Below, piece by piece: positions 6,517 through 22,473 of a stretch of DNA of 32,892 nucleotides (the stretch's first letter is position 1; every line of letters begins with the position of its first letter). The notes under the pieces were generated by a model. That model was not told the DNA's origin, did no database searches, and saw only the letters and a list, made by a program, of their open reading frames with translations. Made by a program: the position numbers and the translations under genes. This DNA is from Bacteroidota bacterium (GTDB taxonomy: Bacteria; Bacteroidota; Bacteroidia; AKYH767-A; 2013-40CM-41-45): contig PLYJ01000208.1 in the NCBI GenBank assembly GCA_003151745.1, positions 1-32,892 of the forward strand, written 5' to 3'.

Positions 6517-9500
6517 TCAATCGAAATTAAGCTTTATTCCAAAATTCATTCTTCTTGGCAAACTATAATTACCGGGATTGTTTACTGCAATGGCAAACAA
6601 ATCACGGAAGGAAGCAGGATTAACCTGCTGAGCAATAGAAGCCTGCGACGATGCAGCTGACAAATAACCATTATCATTCGGGTTACCTGTAGCGCGGTAA
6701 ACAGCAATGACATTTTGCGTGTTTAGTAAATTCTGAACCTGAATGTAAGCGTTAACATAATATCTTTTTTTACCCTTACCCTCTCTTTCCTTACCTACCT
6801 TGAGCACAAAGTCGCGATCCAGCTTTGCATCCATGCGGTATGTCCATGGCAGGCTCGAACCGTTTATGCTGCCGGCAAGGGTTGTTCGTTCAGCTAACCC
6901 GCTGATCACATCAGCGGTTATATTGCTCTGCGCTGTATAAGGAGTGCCTGATCCGGCACGGAATACGAGATTAAGCCCGGTGTTAGCAAGGAACTGCTTG
7001 CCAAACCACATAGGGCCATTGTAATCTTTACCTTCTGCATAACGATAATCTATGGAGCTGGTAATGGTATTGCGCTGGTCAAAATTGAGCGGCATGGGTG
7101 TACGCAGGTTGGGAATGCCGGCTGCAATTACGTTGAACTGAGCACCGGGATTGGAACCTGTACCATCAGCAAATTGAAGGGTATAGTTCGCTGTCATTCG
7201 TATGTTTCCTGTTCTGCGCAGGTCATAAGACAAAGATAATCCTTTAACAGTACCAAAATCCTGGTTGCCATAGGAAATGTAATTAATAGGAAAAGCTCCG
7301 TTAACCGCTACCACCTCAATCATGTCGCGCAGTTCTTTATAATAAGCCGAGATGGATAATGCCGAACTTCTTGTCAGCGCTTGTTTGAAACCTAACTCAT
7401 AATCCGTGGTTCTTTCCGGTTTCAAAGCAGGATTAGGAAGACCGCCGCCGGCAAGTGTTTCAAAAAACAAATAGTCAACAGGGTTAAACTGCGATGAAGA
7501 AGGCGGACGCTGCGTCAGCACATCATAGTGAGCAAAAAATAATGCTTCATCAGAGATCGGAAAAGAAAAGGCAATGCGCGGCATATAATTTACCTGCGGC
7601 GTATATTGCGTAAACGCATCTGCTCTCACCGTCTGGTTGGCGAAATCACTCGGATTTATCAGGTAAGGTTGTATAACTCCGTTAGTAGTAATGGGAGATT
7701 GTGAAATTAAAGAATAATCGGCAATGGCATTTCCATTTGCATCGTAAAACTGGTCGCCGCTGCGATAGCCAACAACGTTGGTCGGGGTGTTTACATCATT
7801 CACATAAACAGTAGCGCTTGACGGTATATTACTCGGCACATTAGCATGAACAGGGAGTAACCCTGAAGCAACTTCACCGGCAGTGTGCGCTGAATAAAGC
7901 AGGTATTTATCTTTTAATACAGGCTGGTTTGCATCATACCTGTCCACACGCAAGCCAATATTAAAGTTAAGGTCGTTGTAGGCAAATTTATCCTGTATAT
8001 ATCCGGCAACATAATTAGGCTGGAAAGCGCCGATACTGCGGGTATAATTATTGCCCGCGTCTTTATTGGTAAGAAAATTACTTAAGCTGACATTGCCGCT
8101 GGTGGCATTGCCCAGATAATCATACCCGTAATAGCTAACATAAGAATTACCATTGTTCAATAACTCATCAGGCGTAAACATGTTCAGCGAAAAAGTGGAT
8201 GGGTCGTAAGAATCAATATCAATTAACTGATTGTAAGGAATGCCAAGCTTGTCGCGAACGTTTTCAAAAAATCCTTTCACGGGCAATCCGTCAACCGTTT
8301 TGGGTACGTATTTCTGATCGTAGTTGATCGTATTCTGGAAAACGCTGTCCTGGTTAATGACAGGATGTGGATTAGCAAAATCGAGTTGTTGATTATTGAA
8401 ATTGCCCAGCTGCCGTGCCAGCGTCCACAGTCCGCTTGGAGAAGTGCTATATCCGCGGTCAATGCGCTGCTCGTACTCCATTCCGATTACAATGGAGTGA
8501 TTCTTTATATCTGCTGAACCCTGCGCGGTAATACGGTATTGCTGGTTGTCAGCTTTAGAATATCCATTGGGTTGGCGGCCAGGCGAACCCCACAGTGAAT
8601 ACACACTTAATGGAATTCGGTTATCACCGTTAATCAATCCTCCTTGTTGAGGAATGTCAGTTATTGTAGTGTAATAATCAACTAAGTTTCCGTTCACAAT
8701 CGCAGATTTAGCCGGAGCCAAGGCATAGTAATCGGAAGTATAATTAGACATGACGGCGTTGATACCGGAAGGCGTAAAGGTTACGAGCGTATCCTGAACG
8801 CTGGTTTGCACGTTGGCCTGAACCAGGTTTCCCTTATAATGGGCAGTGTCCGTTTGCTGATAAAATGGCGCCCTGTATGTTTTGAATTTCCCCACATAAC
8901 CATAATCGAATAAGTTATCCTGATGATCGGCGCTTTGACTTATTCCATTATCATCGGTGTAATCAAACTGGATGGAATAAAAAGCATTCTTAACAGCGGA
9001 TGATGATTTTTCGCCGGAAGTATAATTACTGAATTTCTGTGTCAGCCTGGCAAACATCCTGTAGCTATTGCCGATGCTTTCCGGGTTCTTATCATAATTA
9101 AGTAAAGAATAGATATATGTAAAAGAACGGTTATCGTCATGTGTAAACGAACCGCCAAGCGTAACGGTAACATTGGGAGCGGGAATAATGTCAATCTTGC
9201 CGGACAGATTAATGTTCTGATCGGCGACATTTGCATGTGCGTTTACATGATTCAGATCATTGTATGTAAGAAAATCAGCGCGTTGGTCAAAGCCGGAAAA
9301 GGATTGGGATTTTACCAGTGGATGAACTTCAAGGCTGGAAAGCACATCAGGCTTTATTATATAGGTGCCAATCGCTGAAGGAATGGGGTCGCCGTTATAT
9401 TGATACTCGCCTGAAATAAAGAAACCGGCAAGAGAAGATGATTTTCTTCCAGATGTATCCCTCTTCATGATGATGGGACCGGAAAGATTGAATCCCACTA

Positions 9501-10745: not shown

Positions 10746-13700
10746 ATGCGATTAACAACTCTTGAAATAAAAGGATTCAAAAGCTTCGGTGATAAGGTCA
10801 CCATGCACTTTGATAAAGGTGTAACTTCTGTTGTGGGGCCTAATGGCAGCGGCAAGTCGAATGTAGTGGATGCCATCCGTTGGGTGCTTGGCGAACAGAA
10901 GACAAGAATGCTGCGTTCAGAGAAGATGGAAAACATCATCTTTAACGGAACAAAAACACGCAAGCCATCGAACCTTGCTGAGGTGTCCATGTCGTTTGAA
11001 AACACAAAGAATATTTTACCTACTGAATATTCAAATGTAACCATCACGAGAAAACTTTACCGCAGCGGAGAGAGTGAATATTTCCTCAACAATGTTCCCT
11101 GCCGCCTCAAAGACATCACTGATCTTTTCCTTGACACAGGCATCGGTCCTGATTCGTATGCCATCATCGAGTTGAAGATGGTGGACGATATTTTAAATGA
11201 TAAAAACAATTCCATCAAGCTTCTTTTTGAAGAAGCCGCCGGAATATCGAAATACAAAATCCGCAAGAAGCAAACCTTTGCCAAGCTGGAAGAAACAGAA
11301 GCCGACCTGAACCGTGTGAATGATTTATTGTTCGAGATTGACCGCAACATGAAGCTGCTTGAAAGCCAGGCAAAGAAAACGGAACGTTATTATAAAATAA
11401 AAGAGCAATATAAAGAACTAAGCACTGAGCTTGCCATCCTTCAGCTTGCAGGCAGCAAAGTAAAATTTGAAGAACTGCAAAAGCAGGAAGAGCAACAGCA
11501 CGATGATAAAGTAAAAGTAGAAGCGCAGATAAGCGAACTGGAAGCTTCCGTGCAACAACAAAAGTTAGACACGCTTAATAAGGAGAAGGAATTATCGGCT
11601 GCGCAAAAAGAACTGAATGAAAAGATCAGCACCATTCAGCAGTATGAAAATGATAAGAAGGTAAGTAATGAAAAGCTGAAATATTTACAGGACAAAGAAA
11701 CCTCTCTCACCACGCAATTAAATAATGACAAGACTTCACTCATTCAAACACAAGATGGTGTGAAGCTGATTGAAGAAGAAAAGTTTAATGAGGAGCGTGT
11801 GCTGCAGGATGTGGCAAACCGTCTTGAAGAGCTGAGAACAGTGGTGGAAGAAACCCGCAACCGCCATGTGCAGATGCAGGCGGATATCAATCATCTCACG
11901 CAGGAAGCACAGGCCATACAGGTTTCAACGCATGAGTCGGAAAAGAATTATGCTGTAGCCCAGGCAAAGAAGGAATCGCTGCAAAAAGAAATTGAGCGAC
12001 TGACTACAGACACTGAAAGCAAAGAAAAAGAATTAGAAGAAACAAACCAAAGTCGGCAGTCGCCAGTCGCCAGTCAGCAGTCAGCAGTCAGCAGTCAGCA
12101 GAAGCAGGAGGCGGATATGCATAGTGCCACTGCCACTGCCAACTCTCTTGATGAAGCGCTGAAGAAAATAACAGAAGAAATCATTGACGAGGGCAGAAAG
12201 CTTGATTCAAAGAAAAACGAATACCAGCTTACTAAATCACTCATTGATAATCTGGAAGGCTATCCTGAGTCGCTTCGCTTTTTAAAGAAGTCGGGAACGG
12301 TTGCTAACCAGGCGTTGCTTTTGTCTGACGTGATCTCCTGCAAACAGGAATATAAAACGGCTATCGAGAATTACCTGGAAAGCTACATGAATTATTTTGT
12401 AATAGATAATGTGGAAGAAGCCAGCCGTGCCATCAACCTGTTGAGTGAAGCATCGAAAGGACGCGCTAACTTTTTCCTTCTTTCTGAATTTAAAAATCCG
12501 CAAGCTGTAAATCCTTCACAAATTAATAATTGCATTCATGCATTGGAGATCATTGAAACGGACAGCAAATATCTTCCGCTCATCAATCACCTGCTGCATG
12601 ATGTATATATTGTAACCGGCGACCAGGATAACACACCTCACCTTCAATCGCAAAACACGGACAACATCTTCATTTCGCAAAACGGGAAATACTGCAAGAC
12701 ACGACATGCGCTTAGTGGCGGATCAGTAGGTTTATTTGATGGTAAGCGCATCGGCCGTGCAAAGAATCTTGAATCGCTTTCAACAGAAATCGAAACGCTT
12801 CAAGCATCATTAGAAGGAATAACGACGAAGCGTGACAACATTCAGAAATCACTGAAAGAAAATAAAGCAGAGCTGGAGCGTCTCTCTGCTTCGCGCAATG
12901 CATTACAAAAAGATTTATCTAATCTCACCGGACTGTTATCATCGTTGCAAAGCAAGACAGAACAGCTTGCTTCCATCATCAGCAACAATCAGCGTATAGT
13001 CGCAGACTTGCAATCTCAACTGACCGCTATCAGCCCCCCCGCCCCCCCGAAGGGGGGAGTTGAACACCATCAGGGGGATGGAGAAGCTGAAGCCCCCCTT
13101 TGGGGGGATGGGGGGGCTGCTTTGCGCGCGCAGTATGAAAGAGTGGCAGCATCGCTAGCCGCGCTGCAAGCGGAGTTTACTGCTTTGAACGAAACATTGA
13201 ACACACAGAGCAACGATTTCAACCAGCAGAACATTCAGTATGTGCATCAGCAGAACAAGATTGCCAACTTCACACGGGATATAAATTACAAGCATGATCT
13301 GCTTGAGACCTTGCAGAAAAATATCGAAACCAATTCTGCAGAACTTGAAAAGGTGCAACAACAAACACAAGAGTTAGTAGGCAGCTCGGTTGATTTCGAT
13401 GTGCAGTTGCAAACCATGTACGGAGAAAAAGAATTGCTCGATCAAAACGTAACCACTGTCGAAGCGGATTATTTCAAAATGCGCGGTGCGATTGACGAAA
13501 TAGATAATACCATTCGCCAGTTGCGTCAGCGCAAAGATAATTGCGATGCATTGCTGCAAGCTGTGAAGGATCAGGTAGGTGAATTAAAGTTGTTGCTCAA
13601 CTCGATGAAAGAACGCCTCAGCGTTGAGTTCAATATTGCTATTGAAGAAATTCTTGAACGCGACCCTTCACCCGATTGGACGGAAGAAGGACTGCGCGAA

Positions 13701-14342
13701 AAAGTAAACAAGCAGAAGAATCAACTTGACAACTACGGCCCCATCAACCCGATGGCTGTGGAAGCATATAACGAAATAAAAGAGCGTCACGATTTCATCA
13801 TTGCGCAGCAGCTTGATCTTGCAACTGCAAAGGCATCGCTGCTGCAAACCATTGCCGAGATTGATGCAACGGCGAGAGAGAAATTTATGACTGCGTTCGA
13901 TTCCATCCGCGCCAACTTCATTAAAGTATTCCGCTCCCTCTTTACGAATGACGACACCTGCGATCTGATATTGATGAATCCCGAAAACCCGATTGAAAGC
14001 GACATCAACGTCATTGCGCAGCCAAAAGGAAAGAAACCTTTATCCATCAGCCAGCTTTCGGGAGGAGAGAAAACGCTTACAGCTACTGCGTTGCTATTCG
14101 GTATATATCTTTTAAAACCCGCGCCTTTCTGTATCTTCGATGAGGTGGACGCGCCGCTTGATGACAGCAACATTGACAAGTTCAATAACATCATCAAGAC
14201 GTTCAGCAACGAATCGCAGTTCATCGTCATCACACACAACAAGCGCACCATGGCTGCCACAGACATTATATACGGCATCACCATGATTGAGCAAGGCGTT
14301 ACGCAGGTAGTGCCGGTTGATTTGGCGGAGATGGTGGAATAA
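10746..14342 (+). CDS. smc: Chromosome segregation protein SMC
   Basis: 1198 aa; Walker A GPNGSGKSNVVDAIRWVLGEQ, long coiled coils, hinge near GYPESLRFLKK...SGGSVGLFDGKRIGR, signature LSGGEKTLTATALLFGIY and Walker B FCIFDEVDAPLDD. Confidence 0.97.
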   Translation: MRLTTLEIKGFKSFGDKVTMHFDKGVTSVVGPNGSGKSNVVDAIRWVLGEQKTRMLRSEKMENIIFNGTKTRKPSNLAEVSMSFENTKNILPTEYSNVTITRKLYRSGESEYFLNNVPCRLKDITDLFLDTGIGPDSYAIIELKMVDDILNDKNNSIKLLFEEAAGISKYKIRKKQTFAKLEETEADLNRVNDLLFEIDRNMKLLESQAKKTERYYKIKEQYKELSTELAILQLAGSKVKFEELQKQEEQQHDDKVKVEAQISELEASVQQQKLDTLNKEKELSAAQKELNEKISTIQQYENDKKVSNEKLKYLQDKETSLTTQLNNDKTSLIQTQDGVKLIEEEKFNEERVLQDVANRLEELRTVVEETRNRHVQMQADINHLTQEAQAIQVSTHESEKNYAVAQAKKESLQKEIERLTTDTESKEKELEETNQSRQSPVASQQSAVSSQQKQEADMHSATATANSLDEALKKITEEIIDEGRKLDSKKNEYQLTKSLIDNLEGYPESLRFLKKSGTVANQALLLSDVISCKQEYKTAIENYLESYMNYFVIDNVEEASRAINLLSEASKGRANFFLLSEFKNPQAVNPSQINNCIHALEIIETDSKYLPLINHLLHDVYIVTGDQDNTPHLQSQNTDNIFISQNGKYCKTRHALSGGSVGLFDGKRIGRAKNLESLSTEIETLQASLEGITTKRDNIQKSLKENKAELERLSASRNALQKDLSNLTGLLSSLQSKTEQLASIISNNQRIVADLQSQLTAISPPAPPKGGVEHHQGDGEAEAPLWGDGGAALRAQYERVAASLAALQAEFTALNETLNTQSNDFNQQNIQYVHQQNKIANFTRDINYKHDLLETLQKNIETNSAELEKVQQQTQELVGSSVDFDVQLQTMYGEKELLDQNVTTVEADYFKMRGAIDEIDNTIRQLRQRKDNCDALLQAVKDQVGELKLLLNSMKERLSVEFNIAIEEILERDPSPDWTEEGLREKVNKQKNQLDNYGPINPMAVEAYNEIKERHDFIIAQQLDLATAKASLLQTIAEIDATAREKFMTAFDSIRANFIKVFRSLFTNDDTCDLILMNPENPIESDINVIAQPKGKKPLSISQLSGGEKTLTATALLFGIYLLKPAPFCIFDEVDAPLDDSNIDKFNNIIKTFSNESQFIVITHNKRTMAATDIIYGITMIEQGVTQVVPVDLAEMVE
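12051..12099 (+). repeat. 7-bp tandem repeat inside smc, (AGTCRSC)x7
   Basis: agtcggc agtcgcc agtcgcc agtcagc agtcagc agtcagc agtcagc: seven contiguous heptamers, encoding SRQSPVASQQSAVSSQQ. Confidence 0.95.
13031..13119. repeat. GC-rich inverted repeat within smc
   Basis: Left arm cagccccccc gcccccccgaaggggggag and right arm agcccccctttggggggatgggggggctg are near reverse complements; encodes SPPAPPKGG...APLWGDGGAA in frame. Confidence 0.95.
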
Positions 14343-14387: not shown

Positions 14388-14420
14388 CCGTCAGTCCCGC
14401 ACGTGCGGGATTCCTGACGG
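14388..14420. repeat. Stem-loop just after smc containing GTCCCGCACGTGCGGGAT
   Basis: ccgtcag tcccgcacgtgcggga ttc ctgacgg: outer stem CCGTCAG/CTGACGG plus inner palindrome TCCCGCACGTGCGGGA. Confidence 0.9.
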
Positions 14421-14568: not shown

Positions 14569-14860
14569 ACCATGCACGTGGTAAACTTTACTATGCATGT
14601 GGTATTCTTTACCATGCACACGGTAAACCTTACCGTGATCCAGCAATCCTTACCATGCACGCGGTACTCTTTACTGTGGTCATGGTAAACTTTATCCTGC
14701 ATGGGGCGCTCTTTACTATGCACGTGGTAAACTTTACCGTGAACGCGGTACTCTTTACCGTGCATGAGGTAAACCTTGCCGTGCCGCGGTAAACCTTACC
14801 ATGTATATGGTAAACTTTACTATGCATCTGGTAAACCTCACCATGCATGTGGTAAACCCC
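14569..14860. repeat. 14-unit tandem array, consensus ACCATGCACGTGGTAAACTTT (12 units of 21 bp, 2 of 20 bp)
   Basis: Units segmented by eye from accatgcacgtggtaaacttt (14569) to accatgcatgtggtaaacccc (ends 14860); 12x21+2x20=292 bp exactly fills the interval. Confidence 0.97.
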
Positions 14861-15073
14861 ATCGAACTTGCCTTTTTTAGTGTTTTTTGCACATTTTATG
14901 GCATCTTTACCCCATAGGATTCAAGATTATTATGGAGAATTCAGGTTATTTTAGGCTCAAATCCAACGGGGTGCCCCCTTTTGTTAACATCAATTGTATA
15001 ACTATAGAAGGCAAACTCAGGCAAGGCACTAATTAGACCTACGTTTGGCCCGTCATAAACAGACATCCAAATC

Positions 15074-15751
15074 ATGAGACCATCCATAGCAATAAACCTT
15101 GACAACGAAGATTACGCCGGCTGGGCAAATCTTGCCAACAGAACCGTATCTGGCATTTCTGGTAATGCGTCGTTCACAACGCCAAATCCGGCATTAATTA
15201 CCGTTTCTGCAGCGTCCGCAGCAGTTACTACTGGAATAGCCGTGTGGGGGCCGGTAGGCAATCGCGGAAGCCATGGTTCCTTGGTTGATCTTAGAAGTAA
15301 AACATTAACTCTTGCTCATCTGGTGCGTTCGTTAGCCGCTTATGTTATGTCAACCGCTGCTGTTTTAGCAGGAGATGATGACACGCTCATGGCAGCAATA
15401 ATTACCAGCTCCGGGTTTACTCTTAAAAGAACCGGTGCGCCCGTGGGAGCCTTGCCCATGGTGCAAAACTTTCGTCAAATTGTTTCCACCACGCTGCATC
15501 CCAGCCAGGGAGAAGTGGCATGGACGCTGCCCCTTGGAGTAACCGCCAATAATGTTGACTTCTTCAAAGTGTTGAGAAGCACCGGCACCAGCCTCGCTGC
15601 CGCCGTTGTAATCGGCTATCCCTCCGACACCAAATTTATTGACACCAACACCACCGGCGCTGTGGTTATATATAACTACTGGTGCATTCCTGTTGCTCAC
15701 GGGCATGATGGCGTGCCTTCCGCAATGGTTACTATAACTCTGGCTGCATAA
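15074..15751 (+). CDS. Hypothetical protein with probable C-terminal fibronectin type III-like domain
   Basis: 225 aa; ISGNASFTTPNPALITVSAASAAV...ALPMVQNFR...GEVAWTLPLGVTANNVDFFKVLRSTG...YPSDTKFIDTNTTG...YNYWCIPVAHGHDG has FnIII-like strand spacing; no signal peptide seen. Confidence 0.7.
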   Translation: MRPSIAINLDNEDYAGWANLANRTVSGISGNASFTTPNPALITVSAASAAVTTGIAVWGPVGNRGSHGSLVDLRSKTLTLAHLVRSLAAYVMSTAAVLAGDDDTLMAAIITSSGFTLKRTGAPVGALPMVQNFRQIVSTTLHPSQGEVAWTLPLGVTANNVDFFKVLRSTGTSLAAAVVIGYPSDTKFIDTNTTGAVVIYNYWCIPVAHGHDGVPSAMVTITLAA

Positions 15752-18104: not shown

Positions 18105-18112
18105 TAATTTTG
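18105..18112 (+). promoter_or_regulatory. Putative Bacteroidetes-type -7 promoter element TAATTTTG for the RM operon
   Basis: Matches TAnnTTTG and is followed by dyad GACAA-TAT-TTGTC at 18113-18125; no clear -33 box seen. Confidence 0.4.
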
Positions 18113-18142
18113 GACAATATTTGTCAAGATACATTATTGCCC

Positions 18143-18466
18143 ATGATTAAGGTTGAAACATTCGGAGAAAAGATCAGAACTCTAAGAGAACAAAATGAAA
18201 TGCCTTTAAGAAAACTTGCTGCGCTACTTGACCTTGACCAGTCAACATTAAGCAAGATTGAGCGAGGTGAACGCAAAGCAAACGCAGATATGATTGAGCG
18301 ACTTGCCAAAATTTTCAAAGTAAATAAGAAAGAATTACAAGTAAGTTTTGTAAGCGACCAAGTAGCTTACAATCTACTCGAAGAAGAATTTGGGAAAGAA
18401 ATTTTAGAAGTAGCAGAACAAAAAATAACTTACTTTAAGAAAATACGGAAATCAGCACATGTTTAA
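18143..18466 (+). CDS. XRE-family HTH regulator (possible controller protein of the RM operon)
   Basis: The ORF track starts at TTG 18110; ATG 18143 gives MIKVETFGEKIRTLREQNEMPLRKLAALLDLDQSTLSKIERGERKANADMIERLAKIF, a canonical HTH_3; overlaps the methylase gene start by 8 bp. Confidence 0.88.
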   Translation: MIKVETFGEKIRTLREQNEMPLRKLAALLDLDQSTLSKIERGERKANADMIERLAKIFKVNKKELQVSFVSDQVAYNLLEEEFGKEILEVAEQKITYFKKIRKSAHV

Positions 18467-19343
18467 CGAAGCCATTGATATAACCATAAAAACTCAAAGA
18501 ACCACTTTTGCGAAAACGCAAAAGCTATTTCCCGAGTATGACAGTCGCAAACCTTTTTTAAAATGGGCAGGCGGAAAAAGTCAATTAATACCTGAACTTG
18601 TAAAATACATTCCAAATAAATTTAACAGTTATTTAGAACCGTTCATCGGAGGAGGCGCACTATTTTTCTATTTGAATCATAATGCTTCCGTAATATCCGA
18701 TTCCAACGAAGAACTTATTATCACTTATCAAGCAGTAAAGGATAATGTCAATTCTATAATTGATATACTTGACGGCTTTGTTAATGAAGAAACCTTTTTT
18801 TACCAAGTGAGATCACTTGATCCGCACACATTAAATCTATCTGAACGAGCAGCGAGATTAATTTACTTAAACAAAACCTGCTTTAATGGACTGTATAGAG
18901 TTAATAAGAAAGGAATATTCAATGTTCCATATAACAAAAGAGATAGTGAGCAATTCTACAATAAAGAAACATTGATAAACGCCAGTAGGCGTTTACAAAA
19001 TACAACTATCATCCATTCTGATTATAAAGCTGTTTTAAAAAAGCACACAAGGAAAGGAGACTTTGTTTTTTTAGATCCTCCTTATCAGCCAATGAGTAAA
19101 TATTCCGATTTCAAAAGATATACTAAGGAATTCTTTTACGAAAAAGATCAGAAAGAATTATTTATTGTATTCAAAGAATTAGTTGATAAAGGTTGCTTTG
19201 TAATTCTTACAAACTCAAATCATCCCTTGATCACAGACCTTTATAAGAATTTTAGAATTGAGGTAATAGAAACAAGGCGGTTAATAAGTTGCGACCCCAG
19301 CACACGAACAGGAAAGGACATTATTGTTTTAGGCGGAATTTAA
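18459..19343 (+). CDS. DNA adenine methylase (Dam/M.DpnII-like, D12 class)
   Basis: KPFLKWAGGKSQLIPELVKYIP, LEPFIGGGALFFYLN and DFVFLDPPYQP are motifs X, I and IV of alpha-class N6-adenine methylases. Confidence 0.95.
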   Translation: MFNEAIDITIKTQRTTFAKTQKLFPEYDSRKPFLKWAGGKSQLIPELVKYIPNKFNSYLEPFIGGGALFFYLNHNASVISDSNEELIITYQAVKDNVNSIIDILDGFVNEETFFYQVRSLDPHTLNLSERAARLIYLNKTCFNGLYRVNKKGIFNVPYNKRDSEQFYNKETLINASRRLQNTTIIHSDYKAVLKKHTRKGDFVFLDPPYQPMSKYSDFKRYTKEFFYEKDQKELFIVFKELVDKGCFVILTNSNHPLITDLYKNFRIEVIETRRLISCDPSTRTGKDIIVLGGI

Positions 19344-19346
19344 CTT

Positions 19347-20390
19347 ATGCAATTAGAGATAGAAAACTTTGCAGATCAGTTTCAATATTTCCCAGGCACA
19401 CGTTACATGGGAAGCAAGAATAAAATCATTCCTGACATTTGGCAACATTTGAGTAAACTTGATTTTGAAAGTGTATATGACGCTTTTGCAGGGAGTAATG
19501 TTGTAGGATATTTTCTTAAATGCCAAGGAAAGAAAGTAATCACAAATGATTTTCTTTCTTTTAGCCAAACATTCTCAAAAGCAATAATTGAAAATTCCTT
19601 TGTGAAGCTTGACAAGAGTGATATAAAATCTCTTTTAAAGAAAAACAAGAACAACGGATTCATAAGCGAAACGTTTCGCGATATTTTTTTCTCCGAAGAA
19701 GAAAATGAATTTCTTGATAGAGTGAGGAAGAATATTTCACAACTTGACAACGAATATAAAACTTCATTGGCTCTGGCTGCATTAGTAAGGGCTTGCATGA
19801 AAAAAAGGTCAAGAGGTATTTTCACATTTGTAGGTGAAAGATACAATGACGGAAGGGCTGATATGAAAAAATTATTGGAACAGCATTTTTTAGAAAGTAT
19901 TGAAATATTCAATCAGGCAGTATTTGAAAACGGACAAGAGAATATTTCATTAAATGAGAGAACGGAAAAACAAAATGTCAAAGCAGATTTAGTTTACTTT
20001 GACCCTCCCTACTTCACTCCAAAATCTGATAATGATTATTTAAGAAGATACCATTTTGTGGAGGGCTTAGTAAGAAATTGGGAAGGAATCACTATACAAG
20101 AACATTCAATAGTAAAAAAGTTTGCGAGCTATAAATCTCCCTTTGCAAAAAAAGAAACTACCTATACAGCTTTTGAAAATTTATTTCATAAATTTCAAAA
20201 TTCAATCATTGTCATTTCATATTCTTCAAATTCATTTCCTGCAAAGGATGAATTGACAGCTATGTTAAGTAAGTATAAATCAAAAGTTGTAGTACATGAG
20301 ATTGATCATACATACTCTTTCGGAAATCAAAATCATAAAATAGGAAACAAAAACAATCGCGTAAAGGAGTATTTATTTATAGGTTTGTAG
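19347..20390 (+). CDS. Second D12-class DNA adenine methylase
   Basis: RYMGSKNKIIPDIWQHL, VYDAFAGSNVVGYFLK, DLVYFDPPYFTP; 3 nt after the first methylase. Confidence 0.92.
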   Translation: MQLEIENFADQFQYFPGTRYMGSKNKIIPDIWQHLSKLDFESVYDAFAGSNVVGYFLKCQGKKVITNDFLSFSQTFSKAIIENSFVKLDKSDIKSLLKKNKNNGFISETFRDIFFSEEENEFLDRVRKNISQLDNEYKTSLALAALVRACMKKRSRGIFTFVGERYNDGRADMKKLLEQHFLESIEIFNQAVFENGQENISLNERTEKQNVKADLVYFDPPYFTPKSDNDYLRRYHFVEGLVRNWEGITIQEHSIVKKFASYKSPFAKKETTYTAFENLFHKFQNSIIVISYSSNSFPAKDELTAMLSKYKSKVVVHEIDHTYSFGNQNHKIGNKNNRVKEYLFIGL

Positions 20391-20391
20391 C

Positions 20392-21426
20392 ATGAAAATT
20401 CCAAGTGACGAAATACCGCAAGCAGATGTAATTGAAGATGTAATCAAAACTGTTATTTGCATAGCCAAAGGCGGAGAAACTTTTCAAGATATTGCAAAAG
20501 CAATAGGTAAAGTTGAACGTCAGGGAAGATATTATCGTAAAGCAGCGGAAATAGTTGGATTTGTTGCTACTCCTACAAGAAACCATTCTGTTTTAACTCC
20601 GCTCGGAAAACAGTTAGTAAAATCAAATCCAACTCTTACCAATCCCCTTTTTCTTCAAGGTGTATTGAGTGCAAGAATCTTCCAAAGGATAATTCCTTTC
20701 CTTGAATTATACAAGACAGACGGTGTAACAAGAGAAGAAATTGTTGATTTCATAATTAGCGTTGCAGATATTTCAGGAGATTCAACGGCTCCAAGAAGAT
20801 TTAGTTCCGTAGTATCGTGGCTTGATACTCTTAGAATAATTGAAAAGAAAAACGAAAGCTATTTTCTTTCCACAACTTTGATCAATAAAAAAATTCCACT
20901 ACTTCAATTCACAGAAATTGATGAACCAATTTTACCAAGATCAAGCAACCTGAACGAATACAAAACAGTTGAAATGAGAACTGCCAAAGCGCATGACACT
21001 ATTATTTCCTATCGTGATTTGGCAGCCACTGAAAGAGCAGACAATGCACATCGTAAATTAGTAAACCTTGTTGCAACGAGGGTAAAAGCTACAGGAGCAA
21101 TTCCAAGATACAATCAACTAATTGACCTTGCAACAAGGCATCAAGACGATGATTACATTTTTGAAATGAAATCATTAACGGAAACAAATGTAAAAAGCCA
21201 AGTAAGAAATGGACTTAGTCAGTTATTTGAATATCGTTACTTACAAAACCTTCCTGATGCTAAATTGATACTTGTTGTTGAAACTCCATTACCATCTAAA
21301 ACTAAATGGATGGTTGATTACATGGAGGAGGACAGAGATGTACTTTTGGTTTGGGATGGAGATGATCAACTTTATGGAACAAACGAAACGAGGGAGAAAC
21401 TCGCATTTTTAAATTTACAGCCATGA
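20392..21426 (+). CDS. Putative type II restriction endonuclease (winged-helix-like N-terminus, PD-(D/E)XK-like C-terminus)
   Basis: 344 aa in operon with two adenine methylases; C-terminal NQLIDLATRHQDDDYIFEMKSLTETN...QVRNGLSQLFEYRYL fits D...ExK followed by a Q-rich helix. Confidence 0.8.
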   Translation: MKIPSDEIPQADVIEDVIKTVICIAKGGETFQDIAKAIGKVERQGRYYRKAAEIVGFVATPTRNHSVLTPLGKQLVKSNPTLTNPLFLQGVLSARIFQRIIPFLELYKTDGVTREEIVDFIISVADISGDSTAPRRFSSVVSWLDTLRIIEKKNESYFLSTTLINKKIPLLQFTEIDEPILPRSSNLNEYKTVEMRTAKAHDTIISYRDLAATERADNAHRKLVNLVATRVKATGAIPRYNQLIDLATRHQDDDYIFEMKSLTETNVKSQVRNGLSQLFEYRYLQNLPDAKLILVVETPLPSKTKWMVDYMEEDRDVLLVWDGDDQLYGTNETREKLAFLNLQP

Positions 21427-21588: not shown

Positions 21589-22232
21589 ATCGAGTGGACA
21601 GCCCCACCTGAATGAACAGGTGGGGAGTGCCCCTCACACCACCGTGCGTATGGGTCTCGTACACGGCGGTTTGTTAAGCATGAGTACAATCGCTCTTTTC
21701 ACCAATTGCACTTTGTTTCTTTTATAACAAGGCTGCTAAGCGCGAAGCTTAAAGCTCCTTATTGCATTAGAAACGACTTAACATTCAGTCCTTCGCTGGC
21801 TTGTGAGACCGTCCGATTTATCTTCGGCTCGTAACTACCAACTACTATGACCTCTGCTGACTTCTATTGAAACTCCCTATTGCTTTCGGGAATTGTTGCT
21901 TCGATTGTCGCGCCAATCTTAGTCAACCTATCAACAGACCTCCCCCGGTAAGACAAATATCCTTCGGTCAATCGCTGCTGCATCTACATGATGAATGGTT
22001 TGTAATCTTGGGGCTTTAGTATGATGTGCTACCTCACCCGATTCATCATGCCTCTATATACAGTTTCTGTACGTCAGTACCGACCTTTGCAGTCTCGCTT
22101 ACTTCAGTGCATATCTCACGACAAACCACCTTGCGACTTGCTAATGCTTCCTCAATTTAAGAGGCGCATAAGAGACTTTCACTCTCTGGATTATTCTATT
22201 TGAAAGAACTATATTTGCCATTCAGGGCACAC
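21589..22232 (-). mobile_element. ORF-less group II intron (about 644 nt, ends approximate)
   Basis: Reverse complement begins GTGTGCCCTGAATGGCA; has ...TTACCGGGGGAGGTCTGTTGATAGG...AGAAGTCAGCAGAGGTCATAGTAGTTGG...GAAGGACTGAATGTTAAGTC (recalled as typical upstream of intron RTs), then a domain V-like hairpin and domain VI ending CCACTCGAT. No RT ORF. Confidence 0.8.
21638..21670 (-). ncRNA. Group II intron domain V
   Basis: Minus strand ACCGCCGTGTACGAGACCCATACGCACGGTGGT folds as the domain V hairpin; domain VI with candidate branch A lies directly downstream. Confidence 0.8.
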
Positions 22233-22366: not shown

Positions 22367-22473
22367 CCAGACGTTATCGGATATGCTAACCGCTTCGATT
22401 GAGCGAAACAGCATATTCAAACGGGGAAGCTGAAAACCGAACAGAGTAAGCGGAAAAATAAAATCAAAACAAT

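What the first reader, a model, noticed from the sequence alone, without database searches (positions are those of the whole stretch)
14569..14860. Self-complementary 21-bp tandem array (14 units), palindromic in register on both strands
Consensus ACCATGCACGTGGTAAACTTT has two interleaved dyads: ACC-ATGCACGT-GGT and, across unit junctions, GGTAAA-C-TTTACC. The array therefore reads almost the same on both strands. The period is 21 bp (two turns of B-DNA), so the dyads would lie on one helical face. Units 4 and 11 are 20 bp; they break the heptapeptide frames (+ strand shifts from HARGKLY to TMHAVLF at unit 4 and stops just after unit 11), arguing for a DNA- or RNA-level role. Early units roughly alternate GGTAAAC with GGTACTC/GGTATTC, hinting at a 42-bp higher-order period. 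The array sits about 210 bp upstream of the FnIII-like orphan gene. Candidate roles: operator/centromere-like array or structured RNA.
Basis: partly seen in the sequence, partly recalled or inferred. Interest (0 to 1): 0.85.

Follow-up and report, generated by a model that had tools for sequence, protein, structure and literature searches.

The report
Dispersed 21-bp palindromic repeat array
A 290-base non-coding tandem repeat between two genes of an uncultured Bacteroidota is one of an estimated 140 or so arrays in that genome, most with a repeat length that is a multiple of 21 bases (two turns of the DNA helix) and mostly palindromic; at least one array family is carried by a small mobile element, so this looks like an extreme version of the minisatellite-carrying mobile elements known from Porphyromonas.

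Summary
In detail: window 14569-14857 is 14 units of ACCATGCACGTGGTAAACTTT, units 4 and 11 are 20 bp, and self-complementarity far exceeds column shuffles (z 5.9). It is not a lone operator or centromere. About 13 related copies are dispersed in the same genome, most sharing a right flank; none was found in 60 relatives, ~85,000 other species or viral contigs. In 944 kb of this genome 32 of 54 tandem arrays have a period that is a multiple of 21 (P ~1e-28). The 47 arrays studied form 26 sequence families; 32 are significantly self-complementary. Four same-family relatives sampled have none, but an order-mate has them with other sequences. One family is a 502-bp element with 17-bp terminal inverted repeats (a MITE); those repeats recur in that order-mate's genus and not in the array-free relatives. 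No coding signal, no compensatory pairing, few indels. Best reading: MITE-type, non-coding minisatellites like BrickBuilt/PgRS of Porphyromonas gingivalis, here greatly multiplied and locked to two DNA turns. What causes the lock is unknown; phased protein-DNA contacts are inferred. Terminal repeats of the window's own family were not found.

The parts
14569..14857 (+). array of 14 units, consensus ACCATGCACGTGGTAAACTTT, 21-bp period; dyads TTTACCA-N6-TGGTAAA and GGTAAA-C-TTTACC
14632..14651 (+). unit 4, 20 bp (one base missing), breaks any reading frame
14778..14797 (+). unit 11, 20 bp (one base missing)
14866..14908 (+). conserved right flank ('tail') ACTTGCCTTTTTTAGTGTTTTTTGCACATTTTATGGCATCTTT, shared in diverged form by most dispersed copies (C118, C192, C127, C206, C12, C81, C190, C257)
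14909..14973 (.). inverted-repeat module ACCCCATAGGATT..AATCCAACGGGGTG after the tail, also at C118 and C81 and absent from other copies, so a separate insertion or variant end
14388..14420 (.). small palindrome CCGTCAGTCCCGCACGTGCGGGATTCCTGACGG, also just upstream of the related array at C206; probably an unrelated small repeat
10746..14342 (+). left neighbour: chromosome segregation ATPase SMC (PF02463, PF06470)
15074..15751 (+). right neighbour: FnIII-like orphan, ~57 places in this genome, no Pfam match

Best explanation
The array is the interior of one copy of a dispersed, non-coding, MITE-like intergenic element: a minisatellite of 21-bp dyad units with a conserved flank, present at about 13 places in this genome. 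It is one of some 26 sequence families of the same architecture. Shown: dispersal, intergenic position, non-coding status, 21-bp lock, register self-complementarity, scarcity of indels, and, for one family, terminal inverted repeats that bound a constant 502-bp element. Inferred: copies were spread by a transposase acting in trans on the ends; the arrays then changed by substitution and some whole-unit duplication; the strict 21-bp phase is kept because alternating half-sites every 10.5 bp must stay on one face of B-DNA for a protein (host architectural protein or transposase) to bind cooperatively. Effects on neighbouring genes (promoter, terminator or insulator activity, as reported in part for BrickBuilt) are possible and untested.
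For: Related arrays in the same genome at C118, C192, C262, C127, C135, C162, C190, C206, C12, C81, C257 and others, most with the same tail. 32 of 54 arrays in 944 kb have period 21n, P 1e-28 (1/21 null) or 3e-14 (1/7 null). 26 sequence families among 47 arrays. Self-complementarity p<0.05 in 32 of 47 and in 7 of 11 arrays of other genomes. Family 1: five copies 81-88% identical, no gap in a 451-bp aligned block, 17-bp TIR GACCTCTTTCATAATTC with 36 genome hits against 0 for the reversed control, paired at spans of 502-503 bp or 142-226 bp. The TIR also recurs in three order-mates of genus g12 (one of which, G014, was sampled and carries 21-bp arrays) and is absent from the four array-free family relatives. 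Non-coding. Few indels.
Against: No TIR or target duplication was found for the window's own family; only a tail is widely shared. No autonomous transposase with the family-1 TIR was found in the fetched sequence. No A-tract-type curvature above column shuffles. The 21-bp lock could also reflect an unknown mutational mechanism. Open frames are slightly more common than column permutations predict (39 against 32.6 of 47), perhaps a dinucleotide effect, not resolved. Genome G063 (L230) has one 42-bp array and no TIR.
Confidence: 0.66

Rival explanations
1. A phased protein-binding array with a host function (nucleoid organisation, insulation or segregation): half-sites in alternating orientation every 10.5 bp bound cooperatively, with mobile elements only as the vehicle.
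For: 21n lock in 26 sequence families and in a second genus; few indels; dyads at consensus level without base-pair compensation, as expected for independent half-sites.
Against: Unit sequences are unrelated between families, so no single sequence-specific protein fits; four same-family relatives sampled (372 kb) lack such arrays, so the arrays are dispensable.
Confidence: 0.17
2. A structured RNA: transcripts of the array fold into strings of 21-nt hairpins or one long hairpin that act as terminators or stabilisers.
For: Fold z-scores -6.5 on both strands; T-rich tail to the right of the array; [quoted passage not shown]
Against: Local pairing is no better within a unit than with neighbouring units (0.506 against 0.507-0.516) and the central reflection is not special in most arrays; A-form RNA has about 11 bp per turn (22 nt per two turns; own knowledge); no Rfam match in the array.
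Confidence: 0.1
3. Purely mutational minisatellite: palindromic 21-mers arise and expand by hairpin-assisted slippage, with no function and no mobility.
For: Explains dyads without compensation; higher-order periods of 104, 125 and 146 bp suggest in-place segmental duplication.
Against: Does not explain the exact 21-bp lock, the shared flanks, the TIR-bounded constant-length family or the scarcity of indels.
Confidence: 0.12
4. Decayed or active genes for 7-residue repeat proteins (21 bp = 7 codons).
For: Most arrays have at least one open frame (39 of 47).
Against: Chance expectation is 32.6; codon-phase test p<0.05 in 1 of 47; in family 1 the third codon position of the longest frame is the least variable (171/168/138); the window and C192 arrays have stops in all frames; within-array indels are 1-2 bp.
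Confidence: 0.03

Closest known systems
BrickBuilt MITE of Porphyromonas gingivalis (PMC4596501)
   Same: Bacteroidota; intergenic; direct repeats without spacers inside a leader/tail element; predicted long stem-loops; species-restricted sequence; both TIRs intact in only 4 of 19 copies.
   Different: One family of 23-nt repeats, 19 copies, widely varying repeat number, IS5-like TIR (GAGACCTTTGCA type). Here some 26 families, all in multiples of 21 bp, an estimated 140 arrays per genome, and no TIR defined for the window family.
MITE464/PgRS of P. gingivalis (41-nt tandem repeats; as described in PMC4596501)
   Same: MITE with an internal tandem repeat of about two times 21 nt.
   Different: 41 rather than 42 nt, one family; sequence not compared here.
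Drosophila Foldback (FB) transposons (own knowledge)
   Same: Mobile elements whose self-complementary parts are built from short tandem repeats.
   Different: Eukaryotic, with long terminal inverted arms; here the symmetry is unit-wide and the central reflection is mostly not special.
Plasmid centromeres and iterons, e.g. F sopC with 43-bp repeats each holding a 16-bp inverted repeat (own knowledge)
   Same: Direct repeats with a dyad per unit and helical phasing.
   Different: Here scores of chromosomal arrays with unrelated unit sequences and no adjacent partition or Rep gene at the window array.
REP palindromes (PMC3733652)
   Same: Small intergenic palindromes in many copies.
   Different: REP superfamilies carry GTAG or CGTC tags; the window unit has no such tag and forms a 14-unit array.

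Membership tests
MITE-borne minisatellite (BrickBuilt/PgRS kind) | direct repeats without spacers, intergenic, multi-copy, non-coding | tested here: met
MITE-borne minisatellite (BrickBuilt/PgRS kind) | shared leader and tail around the repeats | tested here: inconclusive
   tail shared by most copies; left flank shared only between subsets (C118/C192, C127/C262, C135/C162)
MITE-borne minisatellite (BrickBuilt/PgRS kind) | terminal inverted repeats | tested here: inconclusive
   met for family 1 (17 bp, paired); not found for the window's family
MITE-borne minisatellite (BrickBuilt/PgRS kind) | target-site duplication and a trans-acting parent insertion sequence | tested here: inconclusive
   TA on both sides at some sites only; no parent IS in the fetched sequence
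MITE-borne minisatellite (BrickBuilt/PgRS kind) | sequence homology to BrickBuilt or PgRS | not tested
   unit lengths differ (23 and 41 against 21 and 42); their sequences were not compared
CRISPR array | unique spacers between repeats | tested here: not met
   contiguous 21-bp units, no spacers
Centromere or iteron array | one or a few sites next to a cognate ParB/Rep-type gene | tested here: not met
   neighbours are SMC and an FnIII-like orphan; about 13 dispersed copies of this family alone
Repeat-protein gene | frame preserved and third codon positions freer | tested here: not met
Structured RNA with conserved helices | compensatory base changes | tested here: not met
   (consensus-level dyads only)
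REP (GTAG/CGTC superfamilies) | tag tetranucleotide at one end of the palindrome | tested here: not met
   unit consensus ACCATGCACGTGGTAAACTTT holds neither on either strand (tag definition from the abstract of PMC3733652)

The most novel reading that the evidence does not exclude
A sequence-independent, geometry-dependent class of DNA element: mobile elements have seeded an uncultured Bacteroidota genome with well over a hundred arrays whose only common features are a two-turn (21-bp) period and dyad symmetry, read by a phase-sensing protein that organises or insulates the chromosome.
Probability: 0.15. Interest if true: 0.85.

Novelty: new variant of a known kind. Interest (0 to 1): 0.56.

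Why it matters
Bacterial minisatellites are usually few per genome with arbitrary periods (own knowledge). Here an estimated 140 arrays in one genome, in some 26 sequence families, share one period that fits the DNA helix, plus dyad symmetry, and a second genus repeats the pattern with other sequences. That turns a vague question, whether mobile-element repeats are shaped by DNA geometry, into one that can be tested by binding assays, chromatin methods and strain comparison, and it supplies a sampled set of arrays to do it with.

Tried and rejected
Protein-coding repeat: rejected by codon phase, stops and 1-2 bp indels. Local hairpin selection: no unit-specific compensation. One long hairpin: the central reflection is no better than others in most arrays; in the window it is (0.56 against 0.32), because the two 20-bp units lie at mirror positions 4 and 11, which has about 1 in 13 odds by chance (and own estimate). 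A-tract curvature: not above shuffles. Link to the FnIII-like family: of the 30 loci examined, about 5 had a 21-bp array within 1.5 kb, near the ~3 expected from array density. Conservation elsewhere: pattern GGTAARSYTTACC-N8-GGTAARSYTTACC has no hit in ~85,000 other species or IMG/VR. Bacteroidota -33/-7-like promoter pattern: not in the array. Autonomous partner of the family-1 TIR: one 1459-bp pair of TIR-like sites at L142 3762-5220 holds short hypothetical ORFs and an assembly gap, no evident transposase. An early belief that L190 and L208 came from two genomes was corrected: they are one genome (identical hit coordinates).

Full report
TRF places a 21-bp array of 13.9 copies at 14569-14857. 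Unit by unit there are 14 units, of which units 4 and 11 have 20 bp. Aligned with its own reverse complement in register, the array matches at 56%, against 38+-3% when the unit's columns are permuted (z 5.9). The 42-bp order is weak here.

The array is not alone. A three-unit probe finds matches on five contigs of the same genome and none in 60 relatives. The palindrome GGTAA..TTTACC finds further copies, and reading them shows about 13 loci between unrelated genes; several lie at contig ends, so some may be two ends of one copy. Most share the sequence just right of the array. C206, C12 and C81 carry a diverged unit, TTATCGCGTACCAGAATAACC, with the same tail; at C206 the array begins with units of the window type. 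An exact-pattern scan of about 85,000 other species and of IMG/VR found nothing (the window's own genome is left out there).

The same genome holds many other arrays of the same geometry and different sequence. In 944 kb (60 stretches: 40 taken by contig number, 20 from long contigs) 54 arrays score at least 80 and 32 have a period that is a multiple of 21, most often 42; P is 1e-28 against 1/21 and 3e-14 against 1/7. A few of the longest periods (147, 189) look like coding repeats, leaving about 29, or roughly 140 per genome by extrapolation. The 47 arrays studied in detail, some of them fetched because they belong to the window's family or lie near FnIII-like genes, form 26 sequence families at the similarity used. 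In 32 of 47 the self-complementarity exceeds column permutations at p<0.05; median z is 3.

Relatives. 372 kb from four genomes of the same family have no such array. Of 346 kb from 20 further genomes, one order-mate, G014, shows five of its six arrays with period 21 or 42 within 20 kb. A second stretch of that same genome, reached through SMC (L208), shows four more (identity of the genomes), and one of those is itself dispersed there. L230, a Sphingobacteriales MAG, has one. Of the 11 arrays from other genomes, 7 are self-complementary at p<0.05. The nearest named SMC matches are uncultured Bacteroidetes MAGs at 56-64% identity, then Sphingobacteriaceae.

Family 1 gives the best anatomy. Five copies, 81-88% identical, align over a 451-bp block without a gap and most end sharply. 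Their ends are inverted repeats GACCTCTTTCATAATTC / GAATTATGAAAGAGGTC. With two mismatches the 17-mer has 36 places in the genome and none for its reversed control; pairs span 502-503 bp or 142-226 bp. That is a MITE. Its interior is a run of 21-bp units, several with a 16-bp dyad such as TGATTACAGGTAATCA (read). The same 17-mer recurs in G014, G017 and G021 (one genus) and in G059, where it lies at many contig ends, as multi-copy insertion sequences do; the four family relatives shown to lack arrays have none. Array presence and TIR presence thus agree in the genomes where both were looked at with some depth; L230's genome, with a single array, has no TIR.

It is not a gene. Stops lie in all frames of the window array. 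Among 47 arrays the codon-phase test is significant in one. In family 1 the third position of the longest frame varies least, and homologous pairs show no consistent third-position excess. Fully open frames occur in 39 arrays against 32.6 expected by column permutation, a mild excess that I attribute to dinucleotide bias without proof.

It is not shown to be a folded RNA. Folding is strong on both strands (z -6.5), as any such consensus must give, but pairing within a unit is no better than with the next unit, and for most arrays the whole-array reflection is no better than others. The dyads are a property of the consensus. That is what independent half-sites, or a palindromic founder unit, would leave.

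What stays unexplained is the lock on 21. Indels are scarce: most family pairs show none inside the aligned block beside 22-59 substitutions each, window against C192 shows three short ones beside 94 substitutions, and window against C118 has larger gaps. 21 bp is two turns of B-DNA, and seven codons; the codon reading fails, so helical phase is the likelier reason. Curvature is not raised, which leaves protein contacts on one face or an unknown copying mechanism.

Known relatives. BrickBuilt of P. gingivalis is a MITE with 23-nt tandem repeats, leader, tail, IS5-like TIRs, intergenic placing and bidirectional promoter activity measured in E. coli; PgRS/MITE464 has 41-nt repeats (PMC4596501). 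By anatomy the present elements resemble these. Membership of the window copy is not proven, because its own TIRs were not found. The number of families, the common period and the recurrence in another genus are new as far as the searches of the held literature went.

Noticed in passing
window 15074-15751 and 56 other places of the genome: An FnIII-like orphan gene family with about 57 places in one genome and no Pfam match, several copies broken by stops; a strikingly amplified orphan family.
   Followed up: partly
window 21953-22125 (-) and 22420-22452 (+): Rfam matches: group II intron D1-D4-3 (RF02001) and DUF805b RNA (RF02914).
   Followed up: no
G059, many contig ends (C9:1, C53:2, C59:2, C61:2 and others): The 17-bp terminal repeat of the family-1 MITE lies at the first bases of many contigs, as expected of an active multi-copy insertion sequence that may be the parent element.
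   Followed up: partly
window 14388-14420; L012 about 8027-8072; L085 left of its array: A small palindrome around TCCCGCACGTGCGGGA recurs near arrays and elsewhere; looks like a separate REP-type repeat.
   Followed up: no
window 18110-21426: Two adjacent D12-class adenine methyltransferase genes preceded by a helix-turn-helix-like gene and followed by a DUF7226 protein: possibly a restriction-modification cluster.
   Followed up: no
L104 336-477; G000 C156 17871-18029; C128 799-1024 and 1186-1411; C196 11022-11245: Short (142-226 bp) elements with the family-1 terminal repeats, probably smaller MITEs of the same group.
   Followed up: partly
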